Below, piece after piece: positions 59,622 through 62,978 of a stretch of DNA of 64,000 bases (its first letter is position 1; each line of letters starts with the position of its first letter). Under the pieces are notes generated by a model. It was not told where the DNA came from. It searched no databases and saw only the letters and a list, made by a program, of their open reading frames with translations. The DNA is from Solirubrobacterales bacterium (GTDB taxonomy: Bacteria > Actinomycetota > Thermoleophilia > Solirubrobacterales > Solirubrobacteraceae): the NCBI GenBank assembly GCA_027315115.1, contig DAHUYQ010000045.1, positions 1 to 64,000 of the forward strand, written 5' to 3'. The position numbers and the translations under genes are program-made.

Positions 59622-60089
59622 CTAGACTTTCATGAAGGTTACAGCTATATGCACCTTGGCCGCATACCCTGACTGCTTAGTCACGACGACTGTCCAACTC
59701 CCGGCACGCTGCGCTGGCAACCGTGGGAACCGCTCGACACAACTGATCTGCGACCCACGGCGCCTACATGATTCTGGATTGCGCGTTGAGTTAAGGACGC
59801 TCAAGGTCGCTCCGTACCACGTGTGAATATGCACACTGATGTTAGTCGCCTCCGGAGCGGCCACGGCGACGTCGAACACGTACATCGCTGGCGATGGCGC
59901 GGTAATTCGATATCGCGCCGACGCGCTCCCCTCGGACAGAGACAGGGCGGCTGCTTGCGGTCGTCCCACGATAGCGCTGGTATGAACGAGGCTGCCGCCT
60001 GCGTGCTTGGACGGTTTGTGGGTGGCTCCACATGCAGCCGCGCCAAGCACGAGCGCACAGCACCCGATCGTAGCAAGCGTTCGTCTCAC
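59622..60089 (-). CDS. putative lipoprotein, end of the Mau-like cluster
   Basis: 155 residues; signal RRTLATIGCCALVLG with the lipobox GAAACGA, so probably lipid-anchored outside the membrane. The mature part is beta-rich (ARYRITAPSPAMYVFDVAV, VHIHTWYGATLSVL, GSWTVVVTKQSGYAAKVHIA). Two Cys (SCRRRGSQISC) could form a disulfide. The GTG start overlaps the stop of the upstream gene (GTGA). Family unknown. Base composition is lower in GC than most of the window. Confidence 0.65.
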   Translation of the reverse strand: MRRTLATIGCCALVLGAAACGATHKPSKHAGGSLVHTSAIVGRPQAAALSLSEGSASARYRITAPSPAMYVFDVAVAAPEATNISVHIHTWYGATLSVLNSTRNPESCRRRGSQISCVERFPRLPAQRAGSWTVVVTKQSGYAAKVHIAVTFMKV

Positions 60090-60616
60090 CCCAAGACTCC
60101 GGCCGACACCGACACGGAAACTGATTCGACGATTGCTTCGGCCGTGTGGATGTCGTCCGCCGACGCCGCGAGTCCCTCCCAGATCATCACCGTGAGTGCA
60201 GCCGGCTCGGGACGTTCGGTGGTCGGAGCGAGATTGTGTCCTACCCGCCGCCAGACGAACTTGGCGCCCCACTCGTAATCTAGCTGGACGGGGAACACCT
60301 GAGACTGACTGTACACGAGTGGATATGAGTAATGACTATAGTCTGGGATCGGAGGCCGGTCCGGATCGTCGATCGCTGGATCACCCAAGACCTCATAGTA
60401 CACCCAAATAAGGATTCCCGCTTCATCGAGTGCACTGATGTCAGGTGTGTTGTCTTCGCTTGCGACGGGTACTTGCTGAAGCGGACGATTCGATATCACG
60501 CATAGCTCATGAGGCGACCGAAGCGCCGGGACGACACTAGGCGCTATGAACCAGCCGGTATCGGGGTATTGTACGTCTACGCCGAAACCGCTTCCTTGCG
60601 CTGCACGAGTCAACAT
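60086..60616 (-). CDS. unknown soluble protein in the Mau-like cluster
   Basis: 176 residues, no signal or membrane helix, acidic, with many aromatic and Pro residues (PDYSHYSYPLVYSQSQVFPV, DEAGILIWVYYEV). No family recognised. The ATG has GGGAGT six bases upstream, and the stop overlaps the lipoprotein start. Local GC is low (60301-60360 is 50 percent), unlike neighbouring housekeeping genes. Confidence 0.6.
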   Translation of the reverse strand: MLTRAAQGSGFGVDVQYPDTGWFIAPSVVPALRSPHELCVISNRPLQQVPVASEDNTPDISALDEAGILIWVYYEVLGDPAIDDPDRPPIPDYSHYSYPLVYSQSQVFPVQLDYEWGAKFVWRRVGHNLAPTTERPEPAALTVMIWEGLAASADDIHTAEAIVESVSVSVSAGVLG

Positions 60617-60638
60617 TCAGGACTCCCTTCGGGTCGGA

Positions 60639-61187
60639 TTATGTGATGATCACCATGGCTGCAATGACAGTCGTCACTGCGATCAACACCCTACGTTGGC
60701 GCGCAGTCAAAAAGATCCGCTCAAGCGGTTGCACCTGTAGGGCCGCACGAAAACCGATCAAGCGTCCCAGCGCATAGGCTGACCATCCCACGAGTGCGAG
60801 TGGCGCCGCGTAGATAAGTGTCGCCGCAACGAATACCCAGAAGGCTCCGACCACGACGGCCGTGAACACGCCCAGGCCGAGAAGCACTCCGTAAGCAATC
60901 GGAAGCGTGTCGACATCGAGCGTACGCCGCCAGTAGTCGGGCACCTGCCATGGACTCTGAGGCAGTCCCCCTCCAACGCACTGCAGGACGGCGAGTACGA
61001 GACCAGCGGCCGCTGGGATTACGAGGACGGAGTGAAGCCCTAGGGCTATTGCCGCCCCCCGGACCAGGGCGAGCATGAGGCCCATCAAAATGGCACCGGC
61101 GAATAGCCCTGCGCCATGAAGCAAAGTCACACGACGGAGGGATCTCGATGTGGCTCCGCTCACGGCGGGCCGGAGGGCCGCAGCCAT
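60639..61187 (-). CDS. polytopic membrane protein in the Mau-like cluster
   Basis: 182 residues with four or five membrane helices (for example GAGLFAGAILMGLMLALVRG, VLVIPAAAGLVLAVLQ, GVFTAVVVGAFWVFVAATLI). A conserved-looking loop SPWQVPDYWRRTLD separates helices. No known family is recognised. The ATG has GAGG upstream and follows the 24-codon micro-ORF by nine bases. It may anchor or service the exported Cys-rich protein. Confidence 0.65.
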   Translation of the reverse strand: MAAALRPAVSGATSRSLRRVTLLHGAGLFAGAILMGLMLALVRGAAIALGLHSVLVIPAAAGLVLAVLQCVGGGLPQSPWQVPDYWRRTLDVDTLPIAYGVLLGLGVFTAVVVGAFWVFVAATLIYAAPLALVGWSAYALGRLIGFRAALQVQPLERIFLTARQRRVLIAVTTVIAAMVIIT

Positions 61188-61196
61188 CGATAGGCC

Positions 61197-61271
61197 TCAG
61201 GGCGACCAAAGCGCGACAAGCCCGACCGTAAAGCCGAGCCACGCGAATGCAGCAGCGTGTAGCGCGCCCAT
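61197..61271 (-). CDS. 24-residue hydrophobic microprotein
   Basis: An ATG that directly follows the TAG of the MauA-like gene opens a 24-codon frame ending TGA nine bases before the next gene. The product begins MGALHAAAFAWLGF and ends VALWSP: one membrane helix with three Trp-flanked hydrophobic segments, no charged residue. TAGATG coupling and the short gap to the next gene support translation. Too short to be called by length filters. Confidence 0.5.
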   Translation of the reverse strand: MGALHAAAFAWLGFTVGLVALWSP

Positions 61272-61706
61272 CTAACAGGGCGCCGGCCCGAGGCATGTTA
61301 CCGCGCGGCACCAGACGGTGGTACGCCCGCCGCATGCACCGTATGGCGTCGTGTAGTAGCAGCCAGGACGGCCATCACTGCCGCAGTACACTTTGCAATT
61401 GCTGGTCGTCATGCAGTCGCGGTATCGCGTGTAGAAGTATTTGGCGCAGAACGATGTGCACATGTACCACGAGCCACCTGGGCAGGTCCCACTCGGGCAC
61501 CCATGACCGAACGATCCGCCGCAGGACGTGGTATCGCCACATACGCTGCACGGACAGCTGGCCGGCAGGGCCTGCGCTGGCTGGAATCCCAAACCGCCAA
61601 CTCCGACTGCAGTCGCCGCTAGCGCCGTGCGACCAAGGAAGCTTCGGCGCGTCACGCTTCCGCCGACTCGCCGTGTCGCATTTTCGAATAGTTTGTCAAA
61701 CGACAT
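61272..61706 (-). CDS. Tat-exported Cys-rich protein resembling methylamine dehydrogenase light chain
   Basis: 144 residues. A Tat signal (TRRSFLGRTALAAT) is followed by a mature region of about 95 residues with 16 Cys. Two Trp occur at 80 (GGSWYMC) and 132 (TTVWCRAVTC), 52 residues apart. In methylamine dehydrogenase the TTQ cofactor is built from two Trp about 51 residues apart in similar contexts (S-W-I-G-T-C and N-W-C, from memory). Spacing, Cys density and the neighbouring MauD/MauE-like genes support homology. The cofactor and substrate are inferred. Overlaps the MauD-like gene by 11 bp. Confidence 0.7.
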   Translation of the reverse strand: MSFDKLFENATRRVGGSVTRRSFLGRTALAATAVGVGGLGFQPAQALPASCPCSVCGDTTSCGGSFGHGCPSGTCPGGSWYMCTSFCAKYFYTRYRDCMTTSNCKVYCGSDGRPGCYYTTPYGACGGRTTVWCRAVTCLGPAPC

Positions 61707-62304
61707 TCTCGCTAGCCTCCAATGATAGGCTTGACTGATCCTTTGGCGGTATGACTGAAACAGGCGGGTTGACGATCAGGTAGTCGGCCTGAGCCAACAT
61801 CTCCTCAACATTGTCGAGTGTGTTGACACCACCGGAAACGATGACCGCACCGTCGCGGTCGGTAACGACGGCCCACGGCGCACCCGGTACGTTCTTCGTA
61901 AAGCTTGACCTGTCGGCGATGTGAGGCAGGAATGCCGCCCCCTTGCTCCGGAGATATTCATCGGCTTCTTCGACAGTGGCGTCGAGGACGAGCAAGACTG
62001 CGGTATGGCTATCGGTCGACTTCGCTATACGCCCAAAGGCGGTCGTAAGGCCGCCGCACAGGCCGCAGCCTGGTGACACGAACCCCACCAGATATCGGGT
62101 GGCGTCTCGATGCGCAATCTCGCCCAAAGCCGCAGGTAGCGATAGCTGCGATCCATACTCGGGTCCGTCCCCCGCTGGCATCCCTGCGACTGGCTGGATT
62201 CGGAGATGAAGCACGCCCACTTGCCGGATAAGCGCTACCACTCCAACAGCATTGAGGAGCGACAGCGCAGCGAGCAGGACGACCGACAACTGTAGAATGG
62301 TCAC
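61696..62304 (-). CDS. MauD-like membrane-anchored thioredoxin-fold protein
   Basis: 202 residues: an N-terminal anchor helix (VVLLAALSLLNAVGVVALI) and a TlpA/thioredoxin-like domain with the redox pair C80-x-x-C83 in VSPGCGLCGGL. MauD is required to form the disulfides of the methylamine dehydrogenase light chain; here the target is most likely the adjacent 16-Cys protein. GTG start, eight bases after the MauE-like gene. Confidence 0.78.
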   Translation of the reverse strand: MTILQLSVVLLAALSLLNAVGVVALIRQVGVLHLRIQPVAGMPAGDGPEYGSQLSLPAALGEIAHRDATRYLVGFVSPGCGLCGGLTTAFGRIAKSTDSHTAVLLVLDATVEEADEYLRSKGAAFLPHIADRSSFTKNVPGAPWAVVTDRDGAVIVSGGVNTLDNVEEMLAQADYLIVNPPVSVIPPKDQSSLSLEASENVV

Positions 62305-62312
62305 GATGCGAC

Positions 62313-62978
62313 CTAGTGGCGCTCTGAAGCGACGGTGGTAGCTGCGGTCATTTGGGCCACGATCGCGGTTGTGGTCTGGCGCAGCGGGCCGAGCAGGCGT
62401 GCCATCTCGCTGAGCAGCGCGAGCAGCGCTGCAAAGATCGCTGCAACTCCGACCGTCTCAAGCGGTCGGTCAACCGGAGACGAAGCTGTTGCCACGCTTG
62501 CGAGCACGAGCAGCAGGCCTGTGCGCACGATGCTGTGCGGTCCGATTGTCTCGAGCTCCCCATCGCCACCGAAGCAGGCGCATGCGATATTTCGCCCGCG
62601 TAGGTGCGCATTGATGAGCGCCGTCAAGAAGACCGCGAGCAGCACGGCTCCGATGCCCGCTCCAGTCCGTCCAACCGGAGCGGGTACGGCGAGCCCCGCG
62701 AGGAGCAAGGCTCCAGACAGGATCTCAGCGAACGTGATGAGTCGCGCTGTGAACCGCGTTGCGGCCCCTGGAATCAGCTGATAGTCGTCGATCTGATCCG
62801 CAAACGCAGCAGCAACGCGAACCTTCGACAACCCCGCACCGAGCATCACCAGCCCGACGACCAGCGACGCGGCGGAGGTGACCAAGCCGAACACGAGCGT
62901 TACAGCCCGGGCCAGGACGTATACAGCGGTTTCGTGGACATACGAACAGTAGAAACCATGCCATGCCGGGAAAATCAA
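62313..62978 (-). CDS. MauE/DoxX-like membrane protein
   Basis: Up to 221 residues with four membrane helices. It shows the MauE-like first helix LVVGLVMLGAGLSKVR, a LIPGAATRF segment and a Cys-containing NIACACFGGDG loop. MauE acts with MauD in light-chain maturation, probably passing electrons across the membrane. The start is uncertain: TTG 62978 opens the frame, and a GTG at 62894 just before the first helix is a plausible alternative. First gene of the cluster. Confidence 0.75.
   Translation of the reverse strand: MIFPAWHGFYCSYVHETAVYVLARAVTLVFGLVTSAASLVVGLVMLGAGLSKVRVAAAFADQIDDYQLIPGAATRFTARLITFAEILSGALLLAGLAVPAPVGRTGAGIGAVLLAVFLTALINAHLRGRNIACACFGGDGELETIGPHSIVRTGLLLVLASVATASSPVDRPLETVGVAAIFAALLALLSEMARLLGPLRQTTTAIVAQMTAATTVASERH

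What the first reader, a model, noticed from the sequence alone, without database searches (positions are those of the whole stretch)
59622..62978. MauE-MauD-MauA-like cluster with new partner genes and no heavy chain
Genes for a MauE-like protein, a MauD-like C-x-x-C thioredoxin and a Tat-exported 16-Cys protein run in one operon. The Cys-rich protein has two Trp at 80 and 132, matching the spacing of the Trp pair that forms TTQ in methylamine dehydrogenase. The usual MauB heavy chain and MauG cofactor maturase are not in the window. Instead the operon continues with a microprotein, an unknown polytopic membrane protein, an unknown soluble protein and a lipoprotein. This could be a TTQ-type or heavily disulfide-bonded periplasmic redox system that has not been described.
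Basis: partly seen in the sequence, partly recalled or inferred. Interest (0 to 1): 0.85.

Follow-up and report, generated by a model that had tools for sequence, protein, structure and literature searches.

The report
Selenium protein in methylamine-enzyme-like operon
What looked like a tiny gene followed by an unknown membrane protein is most likely one gene read through an internal UGA as selenocysteine: a selenium-containing relative of the methylamine-enzyme assembly protein MauF, sitting beside the cell's selenocysteine genes.

Summary
The "microprotein" and the "unknown polytopic membrane protein" are one gene, 60639-61271 (-), with an in-frame UGA at 61197-61199. It encodes a MauF homologue (hhalign 99.7%, E 2e-25); the UGA replaces MauF's invariant Cys (WSPCG).
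Evidence for selenocysteine:
- In 69 homologous loci the codon is TGA in 41, TGC/TGT in 28, nothing else; four more distant loci, examined later, have TGA.
- A SECIS-like hairpin follows TGA: the published bacterial model is met by 36 of 41 TGA loci and 3 of 28 Cys loci. The window's own hairpin needs a 1-nt bulge and is not among the 36.
- selA, selB, tRNA-Sec and part of selD lie just past the window end on the same contig.
The family is not in a 119-family selenoprotein catalogue (2026); no NCBIfam selenoprotein model matched.
The 16-Cys protein is a distant methylamine dehydrogenase light-chain relative with both TTQ tryptophans aligned. But the second Trp is missing in 12 of 12 aligned non-canonical relatives, and no MauB or MauG was found in the genome, so TTQ is not supported as the shared function.
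Proposed (inferred) role: a one-site, DsbD-like membrane selenol/thiol relay for disulfide formation in the exported Cys-rich protein.

The parts
60639..61271 (-). Selenocysteine MauF homologue: 210 residues with Sec25, read through one in-frame UGA, stop at the low end. Starts directly after the stop of the Cys-rich gene.
   Evidence: alignment with continuous Cys homologues; MauF, hhalign 99.7%, E 2.2e-25
61197..61199 (-). In-frame UGA (Sec25), context WSP-U-GLSM, at the position of the invariant Cys of MauF
   Evidence: homologous codon TGA in 41 and TGC/TGT in 28 of 69 loci
61152..61171 (-). SECIS-like hairpin: loop CGUGA, 4 bp, a 1-nt bulge, then 3 bp; loop begins 32 nt after the UGA
   Evidence: (-12.1 kcal/mol as an isolated hairpin). 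Against: fails the contiguous-stem test and is not the minimum-energy fold of the 53-nt stretch
61272..61706 (-). Tat-exported 16-Cys protein related to the methylamine dehydrogenase light chain (MauA-like); 144 aa, Trp80 and Trp132
61696..62304 (-). MauD-like protein (N-terminal hydrophobic stretch, CGLC motif, both by eye)
62313..62978 (-). MauE-like (DoxX-related) membrane protein with a CACFGG motif (by eye)
   Evidence: PF07291, 71.5 bits
63079..63969 (-). TetR-like regulator between the operon and the sel genes; a second TetR follows at 63973-64599, mostly beyond the window
   Evidence: PF00440 below cut-off; second TetR over cut-off
60086..60616 (-). Soluble protein of unknown family downstream of MauF; no homologue in related loci, probably not a core part
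59622..60095 (-). Lipoprotein-like ORF (signal read by eye; weak NCBIfam lipoprotein hit E 0.036); no homologue in related loci, probably not a core part

Best explanation
The operon encodes MauE, MauD, a Tat-exported Cys-rich relative of the methylamine dehydrogenase light chain, and a MauF homologue whose single conserved redox residue is selenocysteine. SelB and tRNA-Sec, encoded next door, decode the UGA with the help of a hairpin just downstream (strongly supported, not measured). MauF is related to the DsbD transmembrane domain but keeps only the first of DsbD's two membrane redox residues. The proposed mechanism is inferred: the Sec of MauF exchanges electrons with the MauE and MauD cysteines, so that MauD forms or isomerises disulfides in the Cys-rich protein after export.
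For: 1. Reading frame: the window and five relatives read [FW][ST]P-TGA in frame where three others read WSPC; position 25 is invariant as U/C in 9 of 9 rows. 2. Codon alternation: 69 loci, 41 TGA, 28 TGC/TGT, no other codon; four more distant loci, all TGA. A separate DNA pattern that leaves the third base of that codon open (so only TGN can match) gave 37 loci in a collection of 84,980 species genomes: 22 TGC, 14 TGA, 1 TGT, 0 TGG. 3. Hairpin: 247 of 287 stem cells paired in 41 TGA loci (3'-column shuffles mean 0.67, 0 of 1000 as high) against 74 of 189 in 27 distinct Cys rows, no better than shuffles (296 of 1000 as high). The published bSECIS model, tested with a contiguous stem, is met by 36 of 41 TGA and 3 of 28 Cys loci. 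4. Machinery: selA, selB, tRNA-Sec and the C-terminal half of selD on the same contig, 64703-68269. Among genomes with the TGA form 35 of 41 have tRNA-Sec or SelA; among Cys-only genomes 14 of 27 (Fisher p 0.005). 5. Identity: MauF, hhalign 99.7%, E 2.2e-25, WSP[U/C]G on WSPCG; DsbD transmembrane domain, 93%, E 3e-7 for the family of 41 sequences (80.7%, E 1.3e-5 without canonical MauF; reversed control 0.3%). 6. At least 4 Sec/Cys switches on a tree of 71 rows.
Against: No protein or selenium measurement exists. Six of 41 genomes with the TGA form show neither SelA nor tRNA-Sec (G091, G125, G138, G177, G207, G263); they are 78-91% complete, and the tRNA search of 77 genomes used stricter filters. 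The window's hairpin needs a bulge, fails my contiguous-stem test and is not the minimum-energy fold of its 53-nt stretch (z -0.63). The profile was built with TGA read as C, which favours placing a TGA at that column, though it does not bar other sense codons there. Canonical MauF alone (4 sequences) does not match DsbD significantly (0.8%); only the wider family does. The relay role, its direction and its partners are untested.
Confidence: 0.8

Rival explanations
1. Two separate genes: a 24-residue microprotein, then a membrane protein that starts at the ATG four codons after the UGA by translational coupling. No recoding takes place.
For: The ORF finder lists the downstream ORF with its own ATG start; a Met stands at that place in most relatives.
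Against: That Met is also inside the continuous Cys homologues, in what corresponds to the first DsbD membrane helix. In the 69 loci the codon is TGA or Cys at the invariant position, never another stop. The hairpin is common with TGA and rare with Cys (36 of 41 against 3 of 28). sel genes are adjacent.
Confidence: 0.03
2. A decayed pseudogene or a sequencing error at the UGA.
For: The genome is a 65-contig assembly, 90.65% complete.
Against: The same UGA stands at the same codon in 41 of 69 loci from different genomes, with an open frame on both sides and, in most, a paired hairpin.
Confidence: 0.01
3. A TTQ-type quinoprotein system: W80 and W132 of the Cys-rich protein are cross-linked as in methylamine dehydrogenase.
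For: Both Trp align with the TTQ pair, and the partner genes resemble mau.
Against: The second Trp is absent in 12 of 12 non-canonical relatives and in the 30 proteins; no MauB or MauG found in the genome; the fused C-terminal domain of relatives is not homologous to MauB (hhalign 0.5%).
Confidence: 0.07
4. The Cys-rich protein is a secreted effector or peptide-like product and MauE, MauD and MauF are only its disulfide machinery, as proposed for mauE/mauD-containing RiPP candidates in Streptomyces (PMC7794033, passages seen).
For: Cys number and spacing differ between clades (mostly 10-11 Cys in clade 1, 18 or more in clade 2, ORF counts), while the Tat signal and partners are kept.
Against: Clade 1 is well conserved over its length (mean column identity 51% in 25 rows), and 39 of 69 loci carry a fused C-terminal domain on MauF, which suggests an enzyme or receptor rather than a peptide product.
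Confidence: 0.15

Closest known systems
MauF, MauE, MauD and MauA of the methylamine utilisation (mau) cluster (Paracoccus denitrificans, NC_008688)
   Same: MauF, MauE, MauD and light-chain homologues together in one cluster; WSPCG motif; Tat-type N-terminus of the light chain
   Different: MauF Cys replaced by Sec (UGA); no MauB or MauG found in the genome and none of the operon proteins scanned matched an amicyanin or MauJ family; gene order E-D-A-F; second TTQ Trp not conserved in relatives
DsbD/CcdA transmembrane thiol transporters
   Same: Colinear alignment with the DsbD membrane domain and its first-helix redox motif (hhalign 93%)
   Different: No conserved Cys at the second membrane site (only C25 is invariant among Cys); the remaining redox residue is Sec
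Known prokaryotic selenoprotein families (119 families or subfamilies by the count given in PMC13188914, Table 1)
   Same: UGA/Cys alternation, SECIS downstream, redox active site
   Different: No MauF, MauE or MauD entry in the table; TsoB there is a rhodanese/DsbD fusion-like protein with a UxxxxU motif; no NCBIfam selenoprotein model matched the members scanned

Membership tests
Bacterial selenoprotein | In-frame UGA aligned with Cys in homologues | tested here: met
Bacterial selenoprotein | SECIS hairpin fitting the published model (3-9 nt loop with G in its first two positions, 4-16 bp stem, 16-37 nt after UGA, at most -7.5 kcal/mol) | tested here: met
   Family: 36 of 41 TGA loci against 3 of 28 Cys loci. 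The window itself is not among the 36: it fits only with a 1-nt bulge (-12.1), and the hairpin is not the MFE fold of 53 nt
Bacterial selenoprotein | SelA, SelB, SelD and tRNA-Sec in the same genome | tested here: met
   SelA 449 bits, SelB 317 bits, tRNA-Sec 64 bits, all over cut-off; SelD C-terminal half only, 120 bits (cut-off 125), 203 bases before the contig end
Bacterial selenoprotein | Selenium in the protein | not testable with these tools
   Needs 75Se labelling or mass spectrometry
MauF | Homology over the membrane domain with the WSPCG motif | tested here: met
   99.7%, E 2.2e-25, 185 columns. No Pfam or NCBIfam model matched canonical MauF, so no curated cut-off was available to apply
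DsbD/CcdA | Two membrane redox cysteines (helices 1 and 4; the helix numbers are recalled) | tested here: not met
   Only the first is present (as Sec/Cys). Homology supported, membership not claimed
Methylamine dehydrogenase light chain | Match to the curated family model (PF02975 or TIGR02659) | tested here: not met
   PF02975: no match; TIGR02659: 14.3 bits against 196.85, signal region only. Distant homology by hhalign
Methylamine dehydrogenase light chain | Both TTQ tryptophans | tested here: inconclusive
   Both present in the window protein; second absent in 12 of 12 relatives
Methylamine dehydrogenase system | MauB heavy chain and MauG maturase in the genome | tested here: not met
   none at E up to 1 in a 90.65%-complete genome

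The most novel reading that the evidence does not exclude
A selenocysteine membrane relay serves a whole family of light-chain relatives that carry a protein-derived cofactor or cross-link on the conserved first Trp other than TTQ, with the window protein as the one found here that still keeps both TTQ tryptophans.
Probability: 0.1. Interest if true: 0.95.

Novelty: new variant of a known kind. Interest (0 to 1): 0.8.

Why it matters
It adds a selenoprotein family that the 2026 catalogue (PMC13188914) does not list: an integral-membrane, DsbD-related protein with one conserved redox residue that alternates between Sec and Cys. The UGA makes an ORF finder split the gene into a tiny ORF and a truncated membrane protein, and canonical MauF matched no Pfam or NCBIfam model here, so it is easily missed. 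It also suggests that mau-type maturation genes work, in Thermoleophilia, on Cys-rich light-chain relatives most of which cannot make TTQ, and it gives a direct route (selenium labelling, sel knock-out) to the unknown chemistry of MauF.

Tried and rejected
Protein search of the Cys-rich protein in 399 class genomes gave 9 genomes; the eight hits other than the window's own were judged chance matches after reading them. PF02975 in the own genome gave one sub-threshold hit with internal stops. The idea that the fused C-terminal domain of relatives is a MauB was rejected (hhalign 0.5%); it is at best weakly TolB-propeller-like (E 0.004). A defence-system role had no PADLOC match. Profile searches of solved structures gave nothing for MauF and one E 0.24 hit for the clade-2 Cys-rich proteins. 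Promoter and terminator scans found none. Literature listings: searches found 0 papers; 28 (18), 61 (5), 79 (3) and 122 (6) were listed in full; others (20 of 586; 20 of 91; 10 of 3,324; 12 of 21) only in part. None of the titles and abstract starts seen is about a Sec MauF. The library holds open-licence papers only.

Rows left out of counts: of 84 genomes with a family match, 68 are in the codon count (41 with TGA, 27 Cys-only; 69 loci). Of the other 16, G231 and G079 (two loci) were examined later, all TGA; the remaining 14 were not in the count because the listed matches do not cover the site. A further copy in the counted genome G011 was also examined later (TGA). Second matches of counted genomes that do not cover the site were not counted. 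Two loci (L125, L136) showed a second copy of the motif, counted once. In the tree two short rows (L122, L136) were dropped.
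Full report
What is in the sequence. On the minus strand the window holds MauE (62313-62978), a MauD-like protein (61696-62304), a Tat-signal protein with 16 Cys (61272-61706) and then an ORF listed as 60639-61187. MauE is over the Pfam cut-off; the MauD-like protein is a clear but sub-threshold relative.

The missed feature. Directly after the stop of the Cys-rich gene, an ATG opens 24 codons that end WSP, then TGA, then GLSM in frame with the membrane ORF. Searching 399 genomes of the same class with the MauD-like protein gave 11 with a match at E up to 1e-8, the window's own included. 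The neighbourhoods of the other ten were read. In eight of them the membrane protein could be read across the site: [FW][ST]P-TGA in five and WSPC in three; in the other two (L022, L023) the fetched contig did not contain it. Aligned over nine loci, that position is invariant as Sec or Cys.

Codon count. A profile of the membrane protein matched 84 of 399 class genomes. In the 69 loci that were fetched and cover the site, from 68 genomes, the codon is TGA in 41, TGC or TGT in 28 and nothing else. Four more distant loci also have TGA. As a separate check, a DNA pattern with the third base of that codon left open was run over the collection of 84,980 species genomes: 37 stretches, 22 TGC, 14 TGA, 1 TGT, 0 TGG. 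The pattern was made for clade 1 and by design admits only TGN. The record titles name Thermoleophilia lineages (Solirubrobacter, Conexibacter, Miltoncostaea and others) or unplaced Actinomycetota; two say only bacterium. These 37 overlap in part with the 69 loci, so the two counts are not additive.

SECIS. In TGA loci a hairpin sits at +28 to +46 from the UGA. Over 41 TGA rows 247 of 287 cells pair (86%), against 67% (sd 1.9 points) when the 3' column is dealt anew and at most 65% when slid by 1-3 columns. Over 27 distinct Cys rows it is 74 of 189 (39%), no better than shuffles. Two stem positions are split between C-G and G-C; by eye that split largely follows the two clades, so it may be few events. 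The published bacterial model (PMC13188914, Figure 2 legend, section 5 read), tested with a contiguous stem, is met by 36 of 41 TGA and 3 of 28 Cys loci. The window is one of the five TGA loci that fail this strict test. Its hairpin has a CGUGA loop 32 nt after the UGA and a stem with one bulged A, -12.1 kcal/mol alone; in a 53-nt fold another structure wins, and the z-score is only -0.63.

Machinery. The window is C35:1-64000 of a 68,472-base contig. Just past its end on the same strand lie a TetR gene, selA (64703-66094), selB (66101-67660), tRNA-Sec (67670-67761) and the C-terminal half of selD (67793-68269). Operon and sel genes share a lower GC (0.60-0.68 in overlapping 1-kb steps from 59501 on) than the first 57 kb of the window (0.708, sd 0.030). 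SelA is sporadic in the genus (7 of 24 genomes, own included, 6 over cut-off), and none of the 16 congeners listed has the MauF homologue at E up to 1e-5. This fits joint acquisition of client and machinery, which is an inference. Across carriers, 35 of 41 genomes with TGA and 14 of 27 with Cys only have SelA or tRNA-Sec (Fisher p 0.005; data). The six TGA genomes without either are incomplete (78-91%).

What the protein is. Canonical MauF from four plasmid mau clusters aligns with the family profile at 99.7%, E 2.2e-25, with STWSPCGYSS on the Sec site. The family with canonical MauF added (41 sequences) aligns with the DsbD transmembrane domain at 93%, E 3e-7, first redox Cys on the Sec site; without canonical MauF it is 80.7%, E 1.3e-5, canonical MauF alone 0.8%, reversed control 0.3%; the second DsbD Cys has no conserved counterpart. 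Canonical MauF had no Pfam or NCBIfam match. In the members scanned no model passed its cut-off; the best for the membrane part was DsbD at E 0.1. In 39 of 69 loci the frame runs more than 330 residues past the site, giving a C-terminal domain that is weakly TolB-propeller-like and not a MauB; the window's MauF lacks it. A few of the short rows are cut by contig ends.

The Cys-rich protein. It matches canonical light chains at 95.2%, E 2.4e-8, with both TTQ Trp aligned, and the clade-2 Cys-rich proteins (7 rows, found beside Sec MauF) at 96.9%, E 1.9e-10, where W132 faces Val. As a caution, the clade-1 profile (window included) matches the light chains only over the signal region (95.1%), and the clade-2 profile reaches 77.9%. 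In a 17-row alignment only the window and the four canonical chains have the second Trp; 12 of 12 others do not. The first Trp is invariant in the 25 rows. No MauB or MauG was found in the genome. TTQ is therefore possible, among the non-canonical proteins seen here, only in the window protein, and its known maturase is missing.

How it most likely works. Shown: gene content, UGA/Cys alternation, hairpin in the family, adjacent machinery, homologies. Inferred: Sec is inserted; the Sec of MauF exchanges with the CxxC of MauD and the CxC of MauE; the outcome is disulfide formation or isomerisation in the exported Cys-rich protein. That MauE and MauD take part in methylamine dehydrogenase maturation is stated in PMC7794033 (passages); that MauF is needed too is recalled, not checked.

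Known or new. Table 1 of PMC13188914 (section 7, parts 1-2 of 3; sections 5 and 9 also read) covers 119 families or subfamilies by the paper's own count; I saw no MauF, MauE or MauD among them. PMC12013277, PMC5029168 and PMC9312934 were searched for terms only (no occurrence of methylamine, CcdA or DsbD). The literature listings 28, 78, 79, 113 and 122 showed no report of a Sec MauF (78 was listed only in part). The tree needs at least 4 Sec/Cys changes; the window sequence is on a long branch, so its exact place is unsure.

Noticed in passing
64703-68472 of the same contig (beyond the window end; L048): selA, selB, tRNA-Sec and a partial selD lie next to the operon, on the same strand, in the same low-GC stretch.
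   Followed up: yes
L127, L129, L134, L135, L124, L121, L125: A second clade of Sec MauF loci (mostly WSPUGESMLASITPLGERGR) with Tat proteins of 18 or more Cys bearing GWWKC, GWWMC or GWWRC; these look closer to the window's Cys-rich protein than clade 1 does.
   Followed up: partly
L184, L185, L186, L187: More distant MauF relatives with SG-, TG- or SP-UGA at the same site; L187 (G011) carries this Sec form beside a Cys form elsewhere in the same genome (L089).
   Followed up: partly
L023 and L192 (G232): MauD plus Cys-rich gene on one contig and a Sec MauF at the start of another: possibly one operon split by the assembly; ORFs that look transposase-like by eye lie beside the first.
   Followed up: partly
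L125 (G340) and L136 (G376): The same Sec motif occurs twice within a few kb (inverted in L125), either a duplication or an assembly fold-back.
   Followed up: no
G346, G318, G362, G363 (congeners): These have SelA over cut-off but no MauF homologue, so they probably have other selenoproteins.
   Followed up: no
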